From an uncultured Rubritalea sp. (GTDB lineage Bacteria > Verrucomicrobiota > Verrucomicrobiia > Verrucomicrobiales > Akkermansiaceae), in the NCBI GenBank assembly GCA_937132085.1, contig CAKZNV010000188.1:1-46508 (forward strand): a stretch of 46,508 bases of DNA. Reading direction: 5' to 3'. The position numbers and the translations under genes were made by a program. Below, piece after piece: positions 23,077-33,443 of the stretch (position 1 is its first letter; the number at the start of each line of letters is the position of its first letter). The notes below the pieces were generated by a model that saw nothing but the letters and a program-made list of their open reading frames with translations, searched no databases and had not been told where the DNA came from.

Positions 23077-24582
23077 ATGAAAAACTACGAAGCACTACTG
23101 GCACAGGGACTGAGTGAAGATGAAACTTCATTTCCTGATTTCGAGGGATACACAATCCAGAGAAAACTAGGCCAAGGTGGCATGGGTGCTGTGTATTTGG
23201 CTATTGATGAAGAGCTAGAACGTGAAATTGCCATCAAGGTCTTCACGAATCAATCCGCAGACCCAATGAACCTTGAACGCGTGCGTCAAGAGTCAGACAT
23301 CATGGCGAGAATTCAGCATCGTAATGTCATTTCTATTTATAAAGTGATCTCCTCAGAACAATCATTTTGCTTAGTGTTAGAATATGCAGCAGCAGGAGAT
23401 TTATCACGAAAGATAGCCGCCGAAGGCAGCTTGGAGCATGAACAAATGGTCAAGCACTGCTCCGAAATCTGCGATGGTTTGGAGCAAATCCACCAACTTG
23501 GAATCATTCACCGTGATATCAAACCTGCCAATATTTTACTTACTTCACAAGGCGTCGCCAAAGTTGCCGATCTTGGTATCGCTAAAGACACCGCCGCAGA
23601 ATCTCTCACCATGACTGGCTCTTACCTAGGTTCGATGATGTATGTCGCACCTGAGCAAATGACAGCAAGCAGCCTAGTAGATGCGAGAGCTGACATCTGG
23701 GCAATGGGTATTCTCATCTATGAAATGCTCACTGGTAACCCACCAAAAGCTGTGCTCGAATCTGAGCTAATGGAACCCTTGCCTGAGGCGATTCGCCCAA
23801 TTGTTAGAAGATGTTTAAAGCAGAATCCAGAGAACCGATATCCTAATGTGATGGAGCTGAAAGCTGACTTGCTAAAGTCTCTAGAACCTAAACACCCACA
23901 AGCTCTTCCTGCAAAAAAATTATCTCTAAAAACACTACTTATCACTTCTAGCATATTAATCATAGCGGCTACTTCCATCGCTATTTTCTCTCCTAAGAAA
24001 GAACAAAATGAACCAAAAGACCCTGCACCAACAACAGCATCAGAGGAAACGATTGATTTAATAAATCTTCTCCATAGTCCCCTTCAACCAGACCGAGGAA
24101 CTTGGCAGATAAAAAATGATAATCTACGATGCCAGACTGGCAACAAGGTGGCTTGTATTTCATTTCCTGTAGATGCCCTAGGTAATAGCTACGACCTTTC
24201 TTTTAATGTAGTCAGACACCAAGGAAGATATTCTGCTGCCGTTTATCTACCAACATCTATTGGCAATGTAACATTCGATCTTGATGGCTGGGGTAGTCGC
24301 CAATCAGGCATCCAAGCACTCGATAAACAGGATCTGCGCCATCACAGCCAAGGCTTCCGTTTTGGCATGGAGAATGGCACCAGCTACCAGCTCAGACTTG
24401 AGGTCAGAGAGAACTATGTGGATGCATATATCGATGGCAAAAAAGTCAATCATTGCAATCTCACAGGAAAAACAGGATCGATCATTGCTAACTGGGATAT
24501 CCCACGTAAACACGCTATCTCTCTGGCAGCTTGGCAATCTGAAATGACCTTTAGTAAAATAAAATTGAAAAAAATACCCTAG
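23077..24582 (+). CDS. Transmembrane Ser/Thr protein kinase
   Basis: Hanks-type receptor kinase (501 aa). Cytoplasmic kinase domain (about 25-270): the Gly-rich loop GQGGMGAVYLA, ATP-binding K54 in IAIKVF, the catalytic HRDIKPANILL (H145-R146-D147), DLG instead of DFG (D165), the APE at 191-193 and DIWAMGILIYEMLTG. One membrane helix (about 286-304) follows. The outer domain (about 320-501) resembles a concanavalin/jelly-roll ligand-binding domain (FRFGMENGTSYQLRLEVRE and VDAYIDGKKV). All catalytic residues are present. It directly follows the sigma factor with no gap and probably controls it by phosphorylation in response to an outside ligand; that link is inference. A PEP-CTERM protein gene follows. 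Confidence 0.92.
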   Translation: MKNYEALLAQGLSEDETSFPDFEGYTIQRKLGQGGMGAVYLAIDEELEREIAIKVFTNQSADPMNLERVRQESDIMARIQHRNVISIYKVISSEQSFCLVLEYAAAGDLSRKIAAEGSLEHEQMVKHCSEICDGLEQIHQLGIIHRDIKPANILLTSQGVAKVADLGIAKDTAAESLTMTGSYLGSMMYVAPEQMTASSLVDARADIWAMGILIYEMLTGNPPKAVLESELMEPLPEAIRPIVRRCLKQNPENRYPNVMELKADLLKSLEPKHPQALPAKKLSLKTLLITSSILIIAATSIAIFSPKKEQNEPKDPAPTTASEETIDLINLLHSPLQPDRGTWQIKNDNLRCQTGNKVACISFPVDALGNSYDLSFNVVRHQGRYSAAVYLPTSIGNVTFDLDGWGSRQSGIQALDKQDLRHHSQGFRFGMENGTSYQLRLEVRENYVDAYIDGKKVNHCNLTGKTGSIIANWDIPRKHAISLAAWQSEMTFSKIKLKKIP

Positions 24583-24639
24583 TAGCTGCCACCTTGTCGA
24601 AAGTTTGTCGTTCTTAGATTGAAACCAACATTTTAATTT

Positions 24640-25383
24640 ATGAAAACATCACTAACCACAATTGCCGCCACAGCTCTATTACACAGCACATTATCTGCTG
24701 CCAATATTGCCATAGTTAATCACAGTTTTGAGGACACCACTGGACAAAACCCCTACTTCGAATTCACCTTTGGTCGACCTGCTGGATGGACGATTTACGA
24801 TCCTAATGACATCCACCCGAGCTCAGGATTAGCAATAGGAACACTGATGCCGAATGGGACAGATTTCTTTAACTCGACAGCCCCAGACGGAGACCGTGTC
24901 GCCATCCTATACAACAGAACTCGTAGAGGCGATGGAGAATACGGATATGAACAAACTCTAGTCACAACTCTACAATCAGAAACCTTCTACACCCTCACCG
25001 TCGAGGTAGGCAACATCGCATCTGGAGCCGATACCAATGGCTCTAATTACAACCTAAATGGCTTCCCCGGTTACCGAGTAGAACTTCTAGCTGGAGGAAC
25101 TGTGATCAGCGTTGATAACAACTCACTCATAATCCCAGAAGGAGAATTCGCACTATCAACCGTCAGCTTCACCACTGGTGCTACTCATGCTTTACTAGGC
25201 CAGAATTTATCAATCCGCCTAGTCAGCGAAAACGTGATCGATCCTATTGATACGGATGCATACTTAGAAGTAGATTTCGATGACGTTCAGCTCTCCACCG
25301 CAGCCGCCCCAGTTCCAGAACCTAGCTCTACCCTGCTAATTGGTCTAGGCGGATTAGCGATGATCTTCAGAAGGAGAGATTAG
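24640..25383 (+). CDS. PEP-CTERM exported protein
   Basis: A 247-residue exported protein: signal peptide (about 1-20, ending TLSAA), one beta-rich domain (about 21-215), then the sorting tail VPEPSS, a glycine/leucine helix and RRRD. PEP-CTERM tails are cut and attached or sorted by an exosortase, usually in strains with exopolysaccharide; no exosortase gene is in this window. The domain begins AIVNHSFE, continues with GW, YTLTVEVGN and YRVELLAGG, and ends EVDFDDVQL. The same pattern occurs in the PEP-CTERM protein at 30619-31293, in the anti-sigma factor at 31357 and in the middle of the esterase at 27132. It lies 57 bp after the kinase gene, and a bidirectional terminator follows its stop codon. 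Confidence 0.88.
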   Translation: MKTSLTTIAATALLHSTLSAANIAIVNHSFEDTTGQNPYFEFTFGRPAGWTIYDPNDIHPSSGLAIGTLMPNGTDFFNSTAPDGDRVAILYNRTRRGDGEYGYEQTLVTTLQSETFYTLTVEVGNIASGADTNGSNYNLNGFPGYRVELLAGGTVISVDNNSLIIPEGEFALSTVSFTTGATHALLGQNLSIRLVSENVIDPIDTDAYLEVDFDDVQLSTAAAPVPEPSSTLLIGLGGLAMIFRRRD

Positions 25384-25455: not shown

Positions 25456-26817
25456 TTAGAATTCGTAATTTATAAATACGCTGAAGTTCTCAGAAGAGTC
25501 CTTTTGTTTAAGTGCGCCTGATTCATATTCAATCATTTGAAGACCAGCTGATGCTCCAACACTAATTCCGTTGTTCAAGTCCTTCTCGACCATCACACCA
25601 CCACTGTAGTAATGTGATTTAAGATCAGCAGCCATGCCTACATTGGAATCTAAATAGAGTCCTTGGAAGTAAACTGATCCTTTCACATCATTGCCAAAAT
25701 CACGAGATACACTACCTCCACAGCGAGTGCCACGTGCATCAGCTAGTGGAAGTTGGAAGGCATTCGTGATGTTTCTATCTGTAGTTCCATGATTACAATA
25801 CGCCTGCCAAGAGAAACCATTCTGACAGCCATGCACCAATGCCTCATAGCCTAACACTCTAGTTGTGTTAAGAAGAGCATCTTGGTATTCACGGCGCTCA
25901 TAGGTCACTCCTAGTTTATAACCTACGTCATTCACTCTGCCACTCACACCTGCACCTAGCTTGTAACCGTGTGAATCCCAGCCTGGCAACGCATCCCAAT
26001 CCTTCTCTCTATAGGCACCTCTTGTCCATAGAGTTAGTGATGGATTAACGATGTAGTTGATCGCTTGAGAAATTTCATATTGGTGAGTATCGTAGAGATC
26101 TCCGTCGTCTGAATTGTAGAGTCTGCCTCGATAACTAGTTAAATACTCTAGTCCATTAGAGCCTATATCTGCACCATCGGTTCTGAAAGTAAGTGTTGAA
26201 CGGCTTGACAGTAAGGTTCGGTCATACATAGCTAGCCCCTCAGAAATATCTCCAAGTTCTAAGCTGGACAGACCTCCGTAGTTTACTTGAAAATTACCAT
26301 TATAGCGTCCCCATGTGCCAATATTTCTCTCGGACTTTCCTCCTAAATAATAGCCATGAATCAAATCATCCGAGCCATCCCGGCCTGTTGGAGCATCGCT
26401 GTAATAGGTTTCGGATACCCCTGCATTAAACTTAAGATACTCTCCAAGCTCAAATGGCACACCTAGACTAAATTGAGTAACAGTAGAGCTCTCACCATTG
26501 AATGGATCGCCAGTCACATTGCTACTAGTCCCATAGCCTAGACGAAAACGTCCTGTATAGGCTGTCTGTGCATCTTGGAAACATCTGCCTACGATGGAAC
26601 GATCCATTCCAAAAGCATTTGGACTAGCCACGCTTCCCTGATTTAGGAAATTTCCCACATAATCCAGGAAAGGATCAGCATCAAAGCCGAGCGAGTAATC
26701 GCCCTCTTCGGGTAACATCGTCTCTCCCTTTTTAGAGGTGAGATCTTGCGCCATCACGGCGGAGGTGAGCACAGCTAATGCTGGCAAACAATACAGTGTT
26801 GATTTCGATTTTCTCAT
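25456..26817 (-). CDS. Predicted outer-membrane beta-barrel protein
   Basis: A 453-residue protein with a signal peptide (about 1-23, ending VMAQ) and a C-terminal aromatic residue (SVFINYEF), both typical of outer-membrane barrels. From about residue 85 on it is a succession of amphipathic strands with alternating aromatic residues (GRYNGNFQVNYG, GYKLGAGVSGRV, VGYKLGVTYERREY, KGSVYFQGLYLDS). The segment LPEEGDYSLGFDADPFLDYVGN after the signal recalls a family known mainly in Bacteroidetes outer membranes; that is from memory and should be searched. It stands alone between the two sigma-controlled PEP-CTERM loci, convergent with one and downstream of the other. The function, such as pore, transporter or anchor, is unknown. 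Confidence 0.7.
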   Translation of the reverse strand: MRKSKSTLYCLPALAVLTSAVMAQDLTSKKGETMLPEEGDYSLGFDADPFLDYVGNFLNQGSVASPNAFGMDRSIVGRCFQDAQTAYTGRFRLGYGTSSNVTGDPFNGESSTVTQFSLGVPFELGEYLKFNAGVSETYYSDAPTGRDGSDDLIHGYYLGGKSERNIGTWGRYNGNFQVNYGGLSSLELGDISEGLAMYDRTLLSSRSTLTFRTDGADIGSNGLEYLTSYRGRLYNSDDGDLYDTHQYEISQAINYIVNPSLTLWTRGAYREKDWDALPGWDSHGYKLGAGVSGRVNDVGYKLGVTYERREYQDALLNTTRVLGYEALVHGCQNGFSWQAYCNHGTTDRNITNAFQLPLADARGTRCGGSVSRDFGNDVKGSVYFQGLYLDSNVGMAADLKSHYYSGGVMVEKDLNNGISVGASAGLQMIEYESGALKQKDSSENFSVFINYEF

Positions 26818-27131: not shown

Positions 27132-30100
27132 CTATCGAACCTCAACCACGCCCAAACGTAAAAAGTCACGAGCGCTATTCATCCAGGAACCTGTAGCTCT
27201 CGTAATAGAGATTGTTTCAAATTCACCTGAGATGGAATCAACAGTCAATGACGAGCTAGGCACTTTAGTCCAGTTACCTGCAGTTAAAACTAAAGATTCC
27301 TCTAAATTGTAGCTTAGGCCAGCTGGGATTCCTATGCGTCGAGTCACAGTGAAAGTAGTTCCATCAAAGCTAATTGGATGAGACATGCTACTAGCTGAAT
27401 TAGGGTCTGATCCATAAGAGAACTCATGCAAATTACTTTGCCCATCACCATCCGGGTCTTCGTCTGATCCAGCACCAGTAACACTTGCTCCGCCAAAATT
27501 ATCAAACTGCCAAGCTTCTAAACTAGTAGTATCCTTAGGAGCGAACCGTTGCTGAATAGCACCAAGCCATTGTTCCGCAAGAACCACATTGCCCGCTGTG
27601 TTCGTATGCAGAGTATCAATCATCAAGCCCCCTGTGTTAGCATTGATGTGTGTATATTGATCCACTAAATAAATATCCCGACCAGCCACACGCTGAGCTC
27701 TAACAATGTCAGGTAACGCAGTATTATAAGCCAGAACTCTAGGATTCTCAGCAGGATTTAGGTTCGGGGGGATTTGAGCTACAAATATAGCAGGAGTTCC
27801 TACACCAGGCTGGGACATTATTTTGTCTACCAAGGTAGAGAGTCTCGCTGGGGCATTCGCCACATCATCGTTCAGATCAGTATCGTTTGTGCCGAGCATG
27901 ATTAGAATAATCTTAGGTTTCTCGACTGCTAGGCGACCACTGGTCCAGAAATTTTGCCCCGAATCTATGTTTGTGGTCATATCAGTGCGGCCGTTGCTGT
28001 TCACACCTATCGTGGAACCAGAGATCCCACTGTGATAATGATAGAGATTAGTAGCAGCTGTGCCACCTGTAGTTGGTAATCCATCGATATTCGCGGTAAA
28101 ATGCCCTGTATAAGTAAAATCTACATTCTCATCAACAAGAAGGTCATAGAGCTCTTTTCTTGGTGAACTGCTTCCGCTTCCATCAGCATTACTCTGAGTA
28201 ATAGAGTCTCCGATGAACCAAATTGCCCCCAGATCAAGAGGGTTAAGCGTAGCTGCATCTACATCGACATAGCCTCCAGCATTGACCTTGGAGATCTTAC
28301 AGGCAATGAGTTGGTTAGGAGCAACAGTAGCGCCGGAGGTGTAGGTGATGTTCGCCACGGTGAACTTACCTGTAGCATTTCCACCAGCGAGAGTATCGAG
28401 ATTAGCTTTGGTGAAGGTTCCTGTGGCAAGGACTTGACCATTGGCTAACAGTTCTAGTTTCGCTCCAGCAAAGGTTCCGCTATCTCTAATGCCGAGAGAA
28501 ACAGAAAAGTTGTATTCTTTATTTGGCTGTAGATACGAACGCGTAGTTTGGAGGAAATGGTTGCCTGCCGTTCCTCCTGAGAAAAATGCGACGTGCTTAC
28601 CTTTCATGTTTTCCATGACTCCAGCATTAATCGTATCGACAGCATTAGTATAAAAACTCGCATCAGGGTTGTAGTATCCATAGCTTCCATCGGCAGCTGT
28701 AGTCCCTGCGGCAGAAAGAATTCTCCAGTTCAGAACTCCAGGTGATGCATTGGATGATAGATCGACAATATGAACATCTCCATCTGCTAACGGAGCAGTT
28801 GTGGTTATTGAAGCAGTTGTATTGGCTTCGAAATCGCCATTTTCAAGACCTAGTGTCGTTCTTCCAAGGAGGATATCTCTCCACTGAACAGCATGATCCA
28901 TCAAGCCGATAGCGCTAAAGTGCACGGTATCGTGGAGCTTGAGACCGCCCCCATTTTCTAGAGTAAATTCATTGGTGCTTGGTCCAAGATGAACATTAGC
29001 GTCGCTCATTGTAGCCAACCGCTGTCCAGCAGTCACAGGTTCTTCTTGAGTCAGAGTGATGCTAGGGATAAATGAGGCTTCAGCTATATACCAAGGAATC
29101 GTCCAGCCTGCATCTGTGCGGCTTTCAGCGATCATAGTGGCTAGTAACGCAGCATGAGCCGTAGCGGTCACATTATTGACAGCATCAGTCTCTCCTTGGT
29201 GCCAGAGACAGGCTCGGAATCCATTAGCAGGAAATGACTGCACCGCCGCCTTCAACCTAGAAGTGTAATTCCCTTGTCCAGGCTGCCACGAGGATAGGGG
29301 TGATCCACCTACTCCAACAACCACAAAGCCAACGGGGACATTTTCTGTAGACACAAGTAAGTCACCAAGTCTCGACCATACTGAACCACCCGTTCCCGTA
29401 GCCAATGGCTGAGGGTCATATCCGTGGCGCCAACTAGCGCCGCCATAGGCGCTAAGAGTCACTACGCGATCGCTCGTAGGAGTGAGTGCTGGGGTGCCGT
29501 GGTTCGCTGAATTAGACTGTCCAGCAGTCACATAAATATCACCTATACCTACTTTCTGAATCACGGCAGAATCTCCTGCAACCCCACTCACCACTGGTCT
29601 GACCTCTAGCTGATACCAGCCTCCAGCGATAATATTAGTCAATGTTCCTGAAAAAGTTCCTGCATTAGGTGAGGCGTCTATTGTTTTCCATGCTGAGGTC
29701 GTTCCTGAGTTTGATCCTGACATCACCACTACTCTTGCTTCTATCGAATCCGGAGTAGTCAGGTAGGTTCCCTGGATATCGATATCTGCAACATTTTCAG
29801 TATCTCTCTGAATGATTTTTCGTGTAGTTGGTGATGTTATTGTCACGTCTGCTGGAGTAGAGCCAGTAGCTTGGCCATTGATATCTACCTCGTAGTAGAC
29901 TGAGCCATCCACAGCAGTATTCGCCCCAGACCAATCATGATTTATAAACTCGATGCGCACACTATGCACTCCTGTGCCTATCAGACCTGCCCCATCATCA
30001 GACACTGTCATCTGAGTAATGCTACCACCTGTTGCAGTATTATTAGCAAAAGGAATGTATTCAAATGTCCCCAATGAAACGAATGTGGTAGGCGCTGAAA

Positions 30101-30539
30101 CAGTTGAGATAGAGAGAGTGTATTTTTGGTTACCTAGCTGCGGTCCATTTATCGTCCAGCCTGCAAAGGACTCGATGGAAGTGATGTCATACCCCTGAGG
30201 GTTAGTGCCGACATCTAAGGCAAAGGTATAGGTCTGAGGAAGCTTGTTCCCCGTGCCAAAAGATTTCGGTAAGTAAAGAGAGTCAGCTCCTGTCCCAGGA
30301 TTGATCACTCCATCATTCAAATCAGCTGCAGTGCCAAAAAAGCCAGCGGCTCCAGTCACAGATGCAGCATTACCTAGATCAGTGCCATCCACTGCACCTA
30401 CGATAGTGGCATTAGTAGGCGTCGTGCTATTGACTCCAGTTGCTTCCAGTGCGGCATGAACCGAACTATTAAAAGAAATGAAGGCTAACAATACAGCTAT
30501 ACAGAGGGATTTAAGGAAATGAGCGACTGGAATATTCAT
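27132..30539 (-). CDS. Secreted esterase with two SGNH-type catalytic domains
   Basis: An 1135-residue exported protein. Order: signal peptide (1-29); a beta-sandwich of about 190 residues; a small beta domain (about 230-328); a sialate-O-acetylesterase-like SGNH domain (about 330-557) with the nucleophile motif GQSNS (S342), LWHQGETD and DTVHF (His540); a linker domain (about 564-765) that begins LENGDFE and ends GYVDVDAATL; a second SGNH/GDSL domain (about 770-1000) with GDSI (S779), GTND (883-886) and DTLH (D975, H978); an Asp-rich calcium-type motif DEDPDGDGQSN (from about 1026); and a C-terminal beta domain. Both active sites look complete, so it probably removes two kinds of ester, or the same ester in two contexts, from polysaccharide. 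It has no PEP-CTERM tail. It is last in the sigma/FecR/PEP-CTERM cluster, with a terminator hairpin just before its ATG. Confidence 0.88.
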   Translation of the reverse strand: MNIPVAHFLKSLCIAVLLAFISFNSSVHAALEATGVNSTTPTNATIVGAVDGTDLGNAASVTGAAGFFGTAADLNDGVINPGTGADSLYLPKSFGTGNKLPQTYTFALDVGTNPQGYDITSIESFAGWTINGPQLGNQKYTLSISTVSAPTTFVSLGTFEYIPFANNTATGGSITQMTVSDDGAGLIGTGVHSVRIEFINHDWSGANTAVDGSVYYEVDINGQATGSTPADVTITSPTTRKIIQRDTENVADIDIQGTYLTTPDSIEARVVVMSGSNSGTTSAWKTIDASPNAGTFSGTLTNIIAGGWYQLEVRPVVSGVAGDSAVIQKVGIGDIYVTAGQSNSANHGTPALTPTSDRVVTLSAYGGASWRHGYDPQPLATGTGGSVWSRLGDLLVSTENVPVGFVVVGVGGSPLSSWQPGQGNYTSRLKAAVQSFPANGFRACLWHQGETDAVNNVTATAHAALLATMIAESRTDAGWTIPWYIAEASFIPSITLTQEEPVTAGQRLATMSDANVHLGPSTNEFTLENGGGLKLHDTVHFSAIGLMDHAVQWRDILLGRTTLGLENGDFEANTTASITTTAPLADGDVHIVDLSSNASPGVLNWRILSAAGTTAADGSYGYYNPDASFYTNAVDTINAGVMENMKGKHVAFFSGGTAGNHFLQTTRSYLQPNKEYNFSVSLGIRDSGTFAGAKLELLANGQVLATGTFTKANLDTLAGGNATGKFTVANITYTSGATVAPNQLIACKISKVNAGGYVDVDAATLNPLDLGAIWFIGDSITQSNADGSGSSSPRKELYDLLVDENVDFTYTGHFTANIDGLPTTGGTAATNLYHYHSGISGSTIGVNSNGRTDMTTNIDSGQNFWTSGRLAVEKPKIILIMLGTNDTDLNDDVANAPARLSTLVDKIMSQPGVGTPAIFVAQIPPNLNPAENPRVLAYNTALPDIVRAQRVAGRDIYLVDQYTHINANTGGLMIDTLHTNTAGNVVLAEQWLGAIQQRFAPKDTTSLEAWQFDNFGGASVTGAGSDEDPDGDGQSNLHEFSYGSDPNSASSMSHPISFDGTTFTVTRRIGIPAGLSYNLEESLVLTAGNWTKVPSSSLTVDSISGEFETISITRATGSWMNSARDFLRLGVVEVR

Positions 30540-30560
30540 ATTGGAGATTTAATAGAGATA

Positions 30561-30589
30561 AAAAAAGCAGGAGGATCATCTCCCCCTGC
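30561..30589 (-). terminator. Intercistronic terminator or attenuator before the esterase gene
   Basis: On the minus strand a 9-bp stem (GCAGGGGGA / TCCTCCTGC, one G-U pair, loop GATGA) runs straight into six T. It starts 29 bp after the PEP-CTERM stop codon, and the T-run ends only about 20 nt before the esterase ATG. There is almost no room for a separate promoter after it, so the esterase is probably expressed by partial read-through. Confidence 0.75.
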
Positions 30590-30618
30590 CTTGATAAGAA
30601 TTTATGCCTGAATGACGT

Positions 30619-31293
30619 TTACTTTTTACGGCGTAAGATCAGAGCGAGACCTCCAAGCCCAAGTAAAGCAATTGAAGATGGTTCTGGAACTACTGTGGCG
30701 TCCAAACGCACGTTATCGAAATCTACATATCTATTAACAGTGGTAGTATCTAATGAGCTAAGTCTGATTGCTAGATTTCCAGCATCACTAGCCTGTCCTG
30801 TATAATTTACAGTAACGTCAGCAAAGGTGCCTGCTGCAGGAATTGTTGAGCTAGTCGCTGATGCAAGAACAGAATCTCCATCTAATAGTTCGATAAGGTA
30901 ACCACCAAAAACAGAAAGACCAGCATCACGTCCACCTACACCCACTGTCAGAGTATACATTGTGCCATCCGCAACTGCTTCTGTCGTTGTGTTAGTTAAA
31001 GTAACCCCTGTTGATTCAAAGATAAACAGTGCTGAATCTCCGTCCATAGTTCCAATTACACCGTTAGTGCCAGCGGTATCGACAATGTTACCGTTTGTAA
31101 AGAAGGCTGTGCCTGGGTTAAATGAACCTGTTATGCCTCCCCCTGAAGCAACCCAACCTGTGACGGCTCCTATATTTAGGTCTGTGTCAGCCAGCACTTC
31201 TGTTTCAAAGTCATGGTTAACGATAGCTATCGATGCAGCTTGCGCTACAGATAGAGTTGAAATGCATGCGATAAATAAGTTTCTAAGTTTCAT
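30619..31293 (-). CDS. PEP-CTERM exported protein
   Basis: I chose the ATG at 31293. An in-frame ATG at 31317 would add eight residues but lies inside a perfect inverted repeat. The product has a signal peptide (MKLRNLFIACISTLSVAQA), one beta-rich domain and the sorting tail VPEPSS, a Gly/Leu helix and RRKK. The domain starts IAIVNHDFE, has GW, YTLTVGVGGRD and YLIELLDGD, and ends YVDFDNVRL: the same layout as the protein at 24640-25383. It probably ends up at the cell surface or in an exopolysaccharide layer. The gene has its own ECF-type promoter candidate at 31344-31369, inside the end of the anti-sigma gene, and is followed by a strong hairpin. Role unknown; structural or carbohydrate-binding are guesses. 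Confidence 0.87.
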   Translation of the reverse strand: MKLRNLFIACISTLSVAQAASIAIVNHDFETEVLADTDLNIGAVTGWVASGGGITGSFNPGTAFFTNGNIVDTAGTNGVIGTMDGDSALFIFESTGVTLTNTTTEAVADGTMYTLTVGVGGRDAGLSVFGGYLIELLDGDSVLASATSSTIPAAGTFADVTVNYTGQASDAGNLAIRLSSLDTTTVNRYVDFDNVRLDATVVPEPSSIALLGLGGLALILRRKK

Positions 31294-31315
31294 ATTATAT
31301 TTATGGTTTGAGTTC

Positions 31316-31334
31316 ATACAGATACAATCTGTAT
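31316..31334 (-). promoter_or_regulatory. Perfect 19-nt inverted repeat before the PEP-CTERM gene
   Basis: ATACAGAT-ACA-ATCTGTAT, 8 bp per arm. It starts about 10 nt after the predicted -10 element at 31344-31348, so it would lie at or near the 5' end of the mRNA, either as a stabilising hairpin or as an operator just after the start point. It covers the upstream in-frame ATG at 31317, which argues for the start at 31293. Confidence 0.55.
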
Positions 31335-31343
31335 ATTAGCTTA

Positions 31344-31369
31344 ATGTCTTACATTTTCATTTCGTTTCA
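31344..31369 (-). promoter_or_regulatory. Candidate ECF promoter of the PEP-CTERM gene
   Basis: On the minus strand TGAAACG (plus 31363-31369), 14 nt, then GACAT (31344-31348). The identical two elements with identical spacing precede the sigma gene at 33348-33373. The spacing and the AAC in the upstream box fit group-IV sigma promoters. It lies across the last codons of the anti-sigma gene. Confidence 0.6.
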
Positions 31370-32784
31370 CTATTTTCCCCTTTTTCTTTAAAAAGTTGCA
31401 TTTTAGTCACACGCACATCGTCAAAATCAAGGTAACTCTTTCCTGTGTAATTATCCGCCCCTAGAGTAAGTATTCGCACAGATAGAGGGTCATTCACATT
31501 TACACCCTCAGGAAGATTGCTGCTATCCCAAGTGAAAGAGAGTGAAGTAAACGAATTTGAAACATTCGTCTCAGAGTTTCCTTTGATCGAATGAATCACT
31601 TTATCTCCAGAGACAAAAGCCAACTCGTAATCCGCCAATTGTGAAGAAGCATTTTCAATTCGATGCCCTAAAGTAATACTAAACGTGTAAAGAGTATTTT
31701 CATCTATATTAACCACTTTTTTAAGGTAGCCAGTAGGCTCCATAATAAACCCATAAATATACGCAAGGCACTTTCCTTTCATTCCTTGGAAGTTTCCAAA
31801 TGTGTCACTATTGTCATTCAATTCTACTCTATCATACCAAATATGGGCTCCCGTTGAGTCAAGATGTCCACTTGGATTATAAATGCCCATCTCCACGTCA
31901 TTTTGACCACACCGTTCCCAGCCAGCCAAACCACTCTCATTCCATTCGTTATCAGCAAGTTGCAAATCTTCAAAATCAGCCTCAAAAACAATTTCTACCA
32001 TCTTAGGGAAAAATACCTGAGATTGTAATTCTTTGTATTCTATACTTTTCATCGAACCTTCATGGTCGATTGAAATAGCCTCTCCGCCCTCAAGCTGTTG
32101 AATACCATTTGAGCGGTTTGTGACTTCTACTCTCCCTTTTTCCACATAAATCTCATCCATTGCGGACCAGCCAGAAATCACAGTAAACTGAGTGCCTAAA
32201 TCTACTATTTTCCCCTTAGCGCTAATCACAGTAAATCCCACTCCCTGTTCAGGCACATGAAACGATGCCTTTCCCTGCTCTAAAACAACCGTAGTTTCAT
32301 CCTGAATCTTCAATACTGCAGGAGCAAGCACCACAGCAGTCACATCGTTGGCTAATTCTAACCTAACTGCACCTTGTGTTATGCGCAAAGTCTTACCTAT
32401 GCCCAATTCATCACTCTTCCGTTCTCCCTCTATTTTATATTTTGAATTCCCTGCAAATTCTATTTTCGCTGAATAATAAACAGGGGCTTCTGGTTTAATA
32501 AAGAATTGCACACACAACGATAGCATCAAGCAGGCAGCTATACCGAATACAGCAATACGGATGTTACGTTTACTCTTCACTCTCTCATCTTTTGAACTTA
32601 CTAAGGTAGGTATAATACTCACGTGACTACTCAGAAGCCCATGTTCCAGCGTCACATGTTCCCTGTAGAGCTGGAGAAACTCATCATCAGACTTAATCAG
32701 ATTTTGGAACAAGTCGAATTCCTGCTCATTTAGATCAGAATCTAATAATCTCAAAATTAGTTCATTTTTTTGCTCTACAGTCAT
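31357..32784 (-). CDS. FecR-type anti-sigma factor with jelly-roll-like outer domain
   Basis: A membrane regulator of 475 aa. Seen: a cytoplasmic N-terminal part (1-75; EQEFDLFQNLIKSDDEFLQLYREH, the usual sigma-binding type in this family), one membrane helix (about 76-96), a FecR domain (about 120-240: TQGAVRLEL, VLEQGKASFHV, DLGTQFTV, VEKGRVEVTN), and an outer C-terminal domain (about 264-461) that opens EIVFEADFED and closes SYLDFDDVRV. This last domain is the same type as in the two PEP-CTERM proteins and the esterase linker. It begins 5 bp after the stop codon of the ECF sigma gene, which makes it that sigma factor's likely antagonist. A candidate promoter for the next gene lies within its final codons. 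Confidence 0.88.
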   Translation of the reverse strand: MTVEQKNELILRLLDSDLNEQEFDLFQNLIKSDDEFLQLYREHVTLEHGLLSSHVSIIPTLVSSKDERVKSKRNIRIAVFGIAACLMLSLCVQFFIKPEAPVYYSAKIEFAGNSKYKIEGERKSDELGIGKTLRITQGAVRLELANDVTAVVLAPAVLKIQDETTVVLEQGKASFHVPEQGVGFTVISAKGKIVDLGTQFTVISGWSAMDEIYVEKGRVEVTNRSNGIQQLEGGEAISIDHEGSMKSIEYKELQSQVFFPKMVEIVFEADFEDLQLADNEWNESGLAGWERCGQNDVEMGIYNPSGHLDSTGAHIWYDRVELNDNSDTFGNFQGMKGKCLAYIYGFIMEPTGYLKKVVNIDENTLYTFSITLGHRIENASSQLADYELAFVSGDKVIHSIKGNSETNVSNSFTSLSFTWDSSNLPEGVNVNDPLSVRILTLGADNYTGKSYLDFDDVRVTKMQLFKEKGENSETK

Positions 32785-32789
32785 TCTCG

Positions 32790-33311
32790 TTAGATACCTA
32801 TATTAAATTCTTCAATGCAAAGCTTAAGCTTCATTCTGACTCGCCTAAGAACTACTCTTAAACTTGAGGATTTTTCACCATGACTCTGCGCATAGCTTTC
32901 AATAGTGAGTCCTTGTGTGTAGCGAGCAGCGATTAGAGCTCTATTCTTAGCGCTCAATCTAGCCAAACATTGATCAAGAGCTGCAATTCTAACTTCTGAT
33001 GTTTCAGATGTAGCTGAGACGTCAACCACTGCAATCCTATGAATTACCTCCTCATCAAAGACTACTTTCTTTTCACGAACTAATTTTCTTCGCTCGTTCA
33101 GCGCATGGAATTTAGCCACTTGAAATGCCCATGCTTTAAAGTTAGTGCCTTGTTTAAACGTAGAGGACTTCTTCCATAAAGTAATATTCACTTCTTGAGC
33201 CAAAGAATCAATGTCAGCCTGAACAGGTAGAATAGAACGCAGATACGCACCAATAGCTGACTGGTGCGTCGTGAGTTCTCTAATAAAATATTCTTCTGTA
33301 GATGATGCCAT
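32790..33311 (-). CDS. ECF sigma factor, Rhodopirellula/Verrucomicrobium type
   Basis: A 173-residue alternative sigma factor. Region 2 (about 10-80): IGAYLRSILPVQADIDSLAQEV, FKQGTNFKAWAFQVAKFHALN and ERRK. Region 4 (about 112-165): CLARLSAKNRALIAARYTQGLTIESYAQ, with a recognition helix near SSSLRVVLRRVRMKLK. Length and composition are normal for this group, whose members are usually paired with FecR-like proteins. The anti-sigma gene starts 5 bp after its stop. Upstream lies the element TGAAACG-N14-GACAT, also found before the PEP-CTERM gene, so it probably activates its own transcription. The ATG at 33311 has no Shine-Dalgarno. Confidence 0.92.
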   Translation of the reverse strand: MASSTEEYFIRELTTHQSAIGAYLRSILPVQADIDSLAQEVNITLWKKSSTFKQGTNFKAWAFQVAKFHALNERRKLVREKKVVFDEEVIHRIAVVDVSATSETSEVRIAALDQCLARLSAKNRALIAARYTQGLTIESYAQSHGEKSSSLRVVLRRVRMKLKLCIEEFNIGI

Positions 33312-33347
33312 AAGTTATGGGCCTGAATTACCTAACCTTACTAGTAT

Positions 33348-33373
33348 ATGTCCTCTACAGCCAAAACGTTTCA
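33348..33373 (-). promoter_or_regulatory. Candidate autoregulated ECF promoter of the sigma gene
   Basis: On the minus strand TGAAACG (plus 33367-33373), 14 nt, then GACAT (33348-33352), with the sigma gene ATG 37 nt further on. It matches the element before the PEP-CTERM gene in both boxes and spacing. Immediately upstream is the small palindrome ATTCTGC-C-GCAGAAT (33377-33391), a possible extra regulator site. Confidence 0.6.
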
Positions 33374-33443
33374 ATTATTCTGCCGCAGAATTAAAAAAGC
33401 ACTACTTAAAGGCTGTTCTCGCTCCTACTACCTTCCACTCAAA

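What the first reader, a model, noticed from the sequence alone, without database searches (positions are those of the whole stretch)
27132..33391. Self-contained sigma / FecR / PEP-CTERM / double-esterase regulon
Seen: ECF sigma gene, FecR-type membrane regulator 5 bp later, then a PEP-CTERM protein and a two-site SGNH esterase, all on one strand and in that order. The sigma and PEP-CTERM genes share a promoter-like element, and the membrane regulator shares an outer domain with the products. Known: ECF/FecR pairs usually sense an outer-membrane event and switch on envelope genes. Inferred: the anti-sigma factor monitors surface polysaccharide or the surface protein through a domain copied from its own outputs, and releases the sigma factor to make more surface protein and a deacetylating enzyme. 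I know of no described system with this exact closed layout.
Basis: partly seen in the sequence, partly recalled or inferred. Interest (0 to 1): 0.85.

Follow-up and report, generated by a model that had tools for sequence, protein, structure and literature searches.

The report
Anti-sigma sensor mirroring its surface products
A verrucomicrobial bacterium carries a small genetic switch whose membrane sensor bears the same outer domain as the surface protein and the esterase encoded next to it, and relatives repeat this look-alike design with other domains, which suggests that such sensors detect what their own products bind.

Summary
On the minus strand lie an ECF sigma factor (TIGR02989 family), a FecR-like anti-sigma factor 5 bp on, a PEP-CTERM protein, and an esterase with two SGNH sites (SASA, GDSL). 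The last three share an HpiC1-like domain. The sigma and PEP-CTERM genes share TGAAACG-N14-GACAT.

The layout is not unique: sigma/FecR/PEP-CTERM occurs at 10 of 15 own-genome loci and 13 of 17 in a congener. The four-gene order, with an HpiC1-type FecR and a SASA esterase, recurs in that congener.

The shared-domain claim proved general. Of 148 distinct FecRs, 18 have a same-locus neighbour homologous to their outer domain (0.89 expected, 0 of 10,000 permutations), in 10-11 outer-domain clusters. Random neighbour genes do so less often (12 of 274). Sigma and PEP-CTERM upstream regions share locus-specific elements across 40 loci.

Best reading: one of many autoregulated, probably glycan-sensing ECF/anti-sigma switches resembling clostridial SigI/RsgI. 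Ligand, sigma-dependent transcription and sigma release are untested. The other 130 of 148 FecRs show no match at this threshold, so mirroring is frequent, not universal.

The parts
33348..33373 (-). Promoter-like element TGAAACG-N14-GACAT before the sigma gene
   Evidence: Perfect match; function not tested
32790..33311 (-). ECF sigma factor, 173 aa
   Evidence: TIGR02989 141.8 bits, over cut-off; Sigma70_r2 42.6 bits, region 4 sub-threshold
31357..32784 (-). FecR-like membrane anti-sigma factor, 475 aa, with HpiC1-like outer domain at aa 268-459
   Evidence: PF22825 50.0 bits; PF04773 19.8 bits, sub-threshold; one hydrophobic helix; homologues beside sigma genes in 147 of 148 loci
31344..31369 (-). 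Promoter-like element TGAAACG-N14-GACAT before the PEP-CTERM gene, overlapping the end of the FecR-like gene
   Evidence: Perfect match
30619..31317 (-). PEP-CTERM surface protein, 232 aa, HpiC1-like domain aa 29-206
   Evidence: PF22825 119.2 bits, PF07589 30.7 bits
27132..30539 (-). Secreted esterase, 1135 aa: SASA aa 334-489, HpiC1-like aa 598-765, GDSL aa 774-991
   Evidence: Pfam; both SGNH motif sets

Best explanation
This is one of many paralogous, autoregulated ECF/FecR signalling cassettes of verrucomicrobia. The FecR-like protein holds the sigma factor at the membrane. Its periplasmic HpiC1-like domain, a beta-sandwich like carbohydrate-binding modules, senses directly the glycan that the PEP-CTERM protein and the esterase bind with the same kind of domain. 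Ligand binding releases the sigma factor, by proteolysis or a change of shape. The sigma factor then fires its own promoter and a matching one before the PEP-CTERM gene, making more surface binding protein and esterase for that glycan. Shown: the genes, the shared domain, the matching promoter-like elements, and recurrence of both patterns in relatives. Inferred: the ligand, the release step, sigma-dependent transcription and the enzyme's substrate.
For: Anti-sigma gene beside the sigma gene here and in 147 of 148 loci. HpiC1-like domain in regulator, surface protein and esterase, rare elsewhere in the genome. Outer-domain mirroring in 18 of 148 FecRs, 0.89 expected, 0 of 10,000 permutations; in the set picked by sigma similarity alone 9 of 62, 0.30 expected; above the neighbour baseline. 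Mirror partners are surface or secreted proteins: PEP-CTERM proteins, SASA and GDSL-like esterases, a sulfatase, PSCyt1 proteins. HpiC1-like domains match Stig cyclases of known structure, whose closest structures are carbohydrate-binding modules (PMC9063808, passages). No STN domain over cut-off and only 3 TonB plugs in the genome, so no FecA-type input. Locus-specific elements shared by sigma and PEP-CTERM genes.
Against: 130 of 148 FecRs show no same-locus match at 20 bits. In the own genome 12 of 15 FecRs carry LamG, yet 0 of 9 immediate PEP-CTERM partners of such FecRs do over cut-off. The PEP-CTERM protein of the G006 counterpart has no HpiC1-like hit. The identity of the mirrored domains in the window is only 23%. 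Neighbouring genes share domains anyway in 12 of 274 controls. The window's own promoter pair ranks only 13 of 40 in the cross-locus score. No ligand is known, and the structure model was poor.
Confidence: 0.5

Rival explanations
1. Product sensing: the FecR outer domain measures the product itself, by contact with the PEP-CTERM protein or by competing with it for sites on the surface polymer, so that the switch keeps the amount of product constant.
For: The same domain in sensor and product; in L080 the FecR carries a 58-61% identical copy of its PEP-CTERM partner's domain, with a remnant of the PEP-CTERM motif.
Against: Several mirror partners are enzymes or PSCyt1 proteins, not simple surface proteins. 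Domain identity is often low, 23% here. No test of contact was possible.
Confidence: 0.2
2. Domain shuffling without function: adjacent genes exchange binding domains by local duplication, and the sigma factor answers another signal.
For: Random neighbours also share domains, 12 of 274 against 5.77 expected. Most FecRs show no mirror.
Against: FecR outer domains exceed that baseline: odds ratio 3.0, p=0.003 at 20 bits; 6.0, p=0.001 at 100 bits. Both copies persist in homologous loci: FecR-FecR identity exceeds both FecR-partner identities in 8 of 11 homologous locus pairs, as expected of old, maintained copies. The exceptions are L181/L224, L181/L114 and, by 0.1 points, L200/L099.
Confidence: 0.22
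3. Classical FecR signalling: an outer-membrane TonB-dependent transducer passes the signal to the FecR-like protein.
For: FecR-family homology.
Against: No STN signalling domain over cut-off in the genome, one sub-threshold hit, and 3 plug domains against 15 sigma/FecR loci. None of 8 window proteins scanned is a TonB-dependent receptor.
Confidence: 0.04

Closest known systems
SigI/RsgI polysaccharide-sensing pairs of Clostridium thermocellum (PMC12203970, PMC4711584; passages read)
   Same: Several paralogous sigma/membrane anti-sigma pairs; the anti-sigma outer domain is a carbohydrate-binding or enzyme-like domain; autoregulation; outputs act on the sensed polymer.
   Different: SigI is not an ECF sigma factor and RsgI is not FecR-like; Gram-positive cellulosome genes. 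Here: ECF TIGR02989, FecR-like anti-sigma, PEP-CTERM and SGNH esterase outputs.
FecI/FecR iron-citrate signalling (recalled)
   Same: ECF sigma factor with a FecR-type membrane regulator in the next gene.
   Different: No FecA-type transducer found; the regulator carries its own added outer binding domain.
TIGR02989 ECF sigma factors with LamG-bearing FecR proteins, Rhodopirellula/Verrucomicrobium family
   Same: This cassette's sigma belongs here; 12 of 15 own-genome FecRs have a LamG outer domain.
   Different: The window's FecR has an HpiC1-like domain in place of LamG, matching its products.
Stig cyclases, HpiC1-like fold (PMC9063808; passages read)
   Same: Same domain family as the FecR, PEP-CTERM and esterase modules.
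   Different: Those are cyanobacterial alkaloid cyclases; a binding role is inferred here.

Membership tests
TIGR02989 ECF sigma factors | Model score over the curated cut-off | tested here: met
   141.8 bits, cut-off 124.55
FecR-type anti-sigma factors | FecR domain PF04773 over its cut-off | tested here: not met
   19.8 of 24 bits; 10 of 14 own-genome paralogues pass. Hence called FecR-like.
FecR-type anti-sigma factors | Gene beside an ECF sigma gene, single membrane helix | tested here: met
FecR-type anti-sigma factors | Partner TonB-dependent transducer with STN domain | tested here: not met
   0 STN over cut-off in the genome
PEP-CTERM/exosortase system | PEP-CTERM motif over cut-off and an exosortase in the genome | tested here: met
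   30.7 bits, cut-off 20.7; two exosortase hits over cut-off
SGNH esterases (SASA, GDSL) | Domain scores over cut-off and SGNH motifs | tested here: met
   70.2 and 50.4 bits; motifs. Activity not tested.
SigI/RsgI | SigI-type sigma factor and RsgI N-terminal domain | tested here: not met
   The sigma factor has ECF-type regions 2 and 4; no RsgI family is among the hits for the regulator. It may work like SigI/RsgI but is no member.
SigI/RsgI | Outer domain binds the polymer attacked by the regulon | not testable with these tools
   Needs binding and transcription assays

The most novel reading that the evidence does not exclude
Verrucomicrobial ECF/FecR switches follow a mirror rule: the anti-sigma outer domain is repeatedly replaced by a copy of the outer domain of the locus's own product, with locus-specific promoters. 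Each cassette is then a separate loop that senses its product's ligand or the product itself, and the product's domain predicts the sensed ligand across the genome.
Probability: 0.35. Interest if true: 0.8.

Novelty: new variant of a known kind. Interest (0 to 1): 0.62.

Why it matters
This genome has 33 hits to one sigma family (15 over its cut-off) and 119 PEP-CTERM hits, and I found no described inputs for them. If the sensor mirrors the product's binding domain, inputs can be guessed from sequence, glycan specificity can be tested on small soluble domains, and the cassettes offer independent sigma/promoter/sensor sets. It would also show the SigI/RsgI solution reached with unrelated parts.

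Tried and rejected
Uniqueness of the layout: rejected. FecA-type transducer: unlikely, no STN domain over cut-off. Gene conversion as the general cause of mirroring: not supported in 8 of 11 homologous locus pairs, but not excluded for L181. A first mirror test on 24 FecR/PEP-CTERM pairs found two diagonal hits, window and L080. A repeat without HMMER's --max setting lost the window and L099; it was run again with --max. L104, at 25.2 bits, is not among the 18, where the outer domain was cut slightly differently. The AlphaFold model was too poor to use (mean pLDDT 51.7), so no fold search was run.

Rows dropped: three FecR-like ORFs under 380 aa of the first 89 (L060, L067, L135), giving 86, plus 62 from the 80 named loci = 148. 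FecR-like proteins and the L080 FecR fragment were removed as match targets, and PEP-CTERM tails were cut off. Two own-genome cassettes cut by contig ends (in L054 and L064) are not in the 15. Genes come from a longest-ORF caller and PEP-CTERM tails from a regular expression, so some starts and calls may be wrong. Some regions were picked by HpiC1 hits rather than by FecR (in; L153-L158). My note says 13 of 15 FecRs with LamG; the count is 12 of 15 (corrected).
Full report
OBSERVATION. The four genes lie on the minus strand in the order given. The sigma factor scores 141.8 bits to TIGR02989 (cut-off 124.55). The FecR-like protein is sub-threshold for PF04773 (19.8 of 24 bits) but has an HpiC1-like outer domain (PF22825, 50.0 bits); the PEP-CTERM protein (119.2 bits) and the esterase (71.7 bits) carry the same domain. 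The esterase has SASA and GDSL modules with both SGNH motif sets. The genome holds 9 HpiC1-like places, 4 in this window and 3 in these genes; two others are on SASA esterases elsewhere.

THE LAYOUT IS A REPEATED CASSETTE. The genome has 33 TIGR02989 hits, 15 over cut-off, 119 PEP-CTERM hits and two exosortase hits. Of 15 sigma/FecR loci with a FecR of at least 380 aa, 10 have a PEP-CTERM gene as the next same-strand gene; with 119 PEP-CTERM genes among an assumed 3700, the binomial chance is 3e-12. In the congener G006 it is 13 of 17, in other relatives 11 of 54, and in named loci found by sigma similarity 3 of 62, six of those cut at a contig end. So the PEP-CTERM triad belongs mainly to this genus. 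Longer versions: L049 is sigma/FecR/PEP-CTERM/sulfatase/SASA esterase, and L056 is sigma/FecR/PEP-CTERM/LamG PEP-CTERM/sulfatase with LamG.

COUNTERPARTS OF THE WINDOW CASSETTE. G006 (L079): sigma, FecR-HpiC1 (32% identity to the window's), PEP-CTERM, SASA esterase (139.6 bits), same order and strand. Its PEP-CTERM protein has no HpiC1-like hit and its esterase none either. L159, an Akkermansiaceae MAG: sigma 50% identical, FecR 37% identical with an HpiC1-like match just below cut-off (26.1 of 27 bits), then a gene cut by the contig end with an HpiC1-like domain (66.3 bits). G004 (L080): the HpiC1-like part of FecR is split by an insertion that holds a 58-61% identical copy of the next PEP-CTERM protein plus a Big_5 domain, and the frame shifts after it, so it may be broken or misread. 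So among four FecR-HpiC1 cassettes, two show an HpiC1-like neighbour, one mirrors its neighbour with another domain, and one shows no mirror.

MIRRORING IN GENERAL. Each FecR outer domain was compared with the genes of its own locus and of all other loci. In the first 89 FecRs, 10 had a same-locus match of at least 20 bits (0.88 expected, 0 of 20,000 permutations). After three short ones were dropped and 62 from named loci picked by sigma similarity were added, it was 18 of 148 (0.89 expected, 0 of 10,000); the 62 alone gave 9 (0.30 expected). Grouping outer domains by similarity leaves 10, 11 and 11 clusters with a mirrored member at three thresholds, against 0.91 to 0.98 on average and at most 5 to 6 when permuted. 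Examples: L108, LamG, 54% identical to its PEP-CTERM protein; L181 and L213, 71% and 59% to proteins with GDSL-like modules (31.1 and 31.4 bits, just under the cut-off of 32.9); L200 and L228, 49% and 41% to SASA esterases; L227 and L218, near-identical loci, 68-69% to a weakly F5/8-like protein; L115 and L204, 41-42% to PSCyt1 proteins; L206 and L224, 47% and 41% to PEP-CTERM proteins; L093, DUF642 in FecR and in its third downstream PEP-CTERM protein. In 9 of the 18 the partner is on the other strand, divergent from the sigma gene. In the window the match is 23% identical and 22.8 bits, the weakest of the 18.

CONTROLS AND COUNTER-EVIDENCE. Of 274 randomly taken genes of the same loci (no FecR, sigma or PEP-CTERM genes), 12 had a same-locus match of at least 20 bits (5.77 expected). 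FecR outer domains exceed this with odds ratio 3.0 (p=0.003) at 20 bits and 6.0 (p=0.001) at 100 bits. In 11 homologous locus pairs the FecR-FecR identity exceeds both FecR-partner identities in 8; the exceptions are L181/L224, L181/L114 and, by 0.1 points, L200/L099. Most mirrors thus look old and maintained, but L181 may be a more recent copy. Against a universal rule: 130 of 148 show no match at this threshold; in the own genome 12 of 15 FecRs carry LamG, while 0 of their 9 immediate PEP-CTERM partners do over cut-off (one weak hit).

PROMOTERS. TGAAACG-N14-GACAT is perfect before the sigma gene (33348-33373) and before the PEP-CTERM gene (31344-31369), minus strand. The genome has 4 perfect copies. 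One of the others, C84:30767, also resembles the sigma element in its spacer and lies about 300 bp before an 888-aa DUF6288/PDZ protein. There is no enrichment of near-copies in the genome (14 against 24 for the reversed control) or in the window (3 against 3.32 expected), so a large regulon is unlikely. A post hoc dyad test is reached by 38 of 4000 shuffles. Over 40 loci with a PEP-CTERM gene among the first three downstream, sigma and PEP-CTERM upstream regions of the same locus resemble each other more than those of different loci (15.66 against 13.35, 0 of 20,000 permutations); 16.86 against 13.43 in the 19 with a gap of 90 bp or more, and 14.57 against 13.20 (p=0.008) in the other 21. Clear cases are L049, L093, L102, L108 and L051. 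The window's own pair ranks 13 of 40; the L080 pair, visible by eye, ranks 20 of 40.

MECHANISM. The genome has no STN domain over cut-off (one sub-threshold hit) and 3 TonB plugs, so the outer domain of the FecR-like protein is the likely sensor. HpiC1-like domains match Stig cyclases of known structure (3.5e-39 for the second HpiC1-like PEP-CTERM protein, 24640-25383; 7.1e-28 for the profile of four window domains). Those beta-sandwiches most resemble non-catalytic carbohydrate-binding modules (PMC9063808, passages). With esterase and sulfatase outputs this favours glycan sensing in the manner of RsgI, whose outer domains are carbohydrate-binding modules or enzyme-like domains and whose sigma factors autoregulate and drive genes for the sensed polymer (PMC12203970 and PMC4711584, passages). 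Sensing of the product itself and functionless domain shuffling are the main rivals.

LITERATURE. Searches for PEP-CTERM with sigma factor/FecR/Verrucomicrobia, FecR with Planctomycetes, Rubritalea with PEP-CTERM, ECF classification with Verrucomicrobia, PEP-CTERM with anti-sigma/ECF, FecR with laminin G, PEP-CTERM with exosortase and Verrucomicrobia and anti-sigma with Verrucomicrobia and carbohydrate terms listed no paper whose title or shown abstract start describes this system. Only listings were seen for these, and only open-licence papers are held, so this absence is weak evidence. PMC6056542 on clostridial sigma-I factors was seen in passages only.

Noticed in passing
window 23077-25383 (+): A Ser/Thr protein kinase gene is followed by a PEP-CTERM gene with the genome's strongest HpiC1-like domain (199 bits), which matches Stig cyclase structures at 3.5e-39; possibly a second surface-signalling pair.
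   Followed up: partly
L080 7491-10908 (G004): The FecR gene carries an inserted copy (58-61% identical) of its PEP-CTERM neighbour plus a Big_5 domain, splitting an HpiC1-like domain; the frame also shifts.
   Followed up: partly
L241 3268-3293 (G000:C84:30767): A third near-copy of the sigma promoter element, spacer included, about 300 bp before an 888-aa DUF6288/PDZ protein.
   Followed up: partly
L115, L204, L148: FecR outer domains match the N-terminal part of the adjacent PSCyt1/PSCyt2/PSD1 proteins (L115 and L148 scanned; L204 by similarity).
   Followed up: partly
L048, L049, L051, L054, L055, L059: PEP-CTERM proteins of these cassettes share a nearly identical tail (PEPSSTALLGLGGLAL.LRRRK) although their bodies differ.
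   Followed up: no
window 25456-26817 (-): A 453-aa protein with a sub-threshold match to a beta-barrel porin family (21.2 of 23.7 bits) lies 315 bp beyond the esterase on the same strand; it may or may not belong to the cassette.
   Followed up: no
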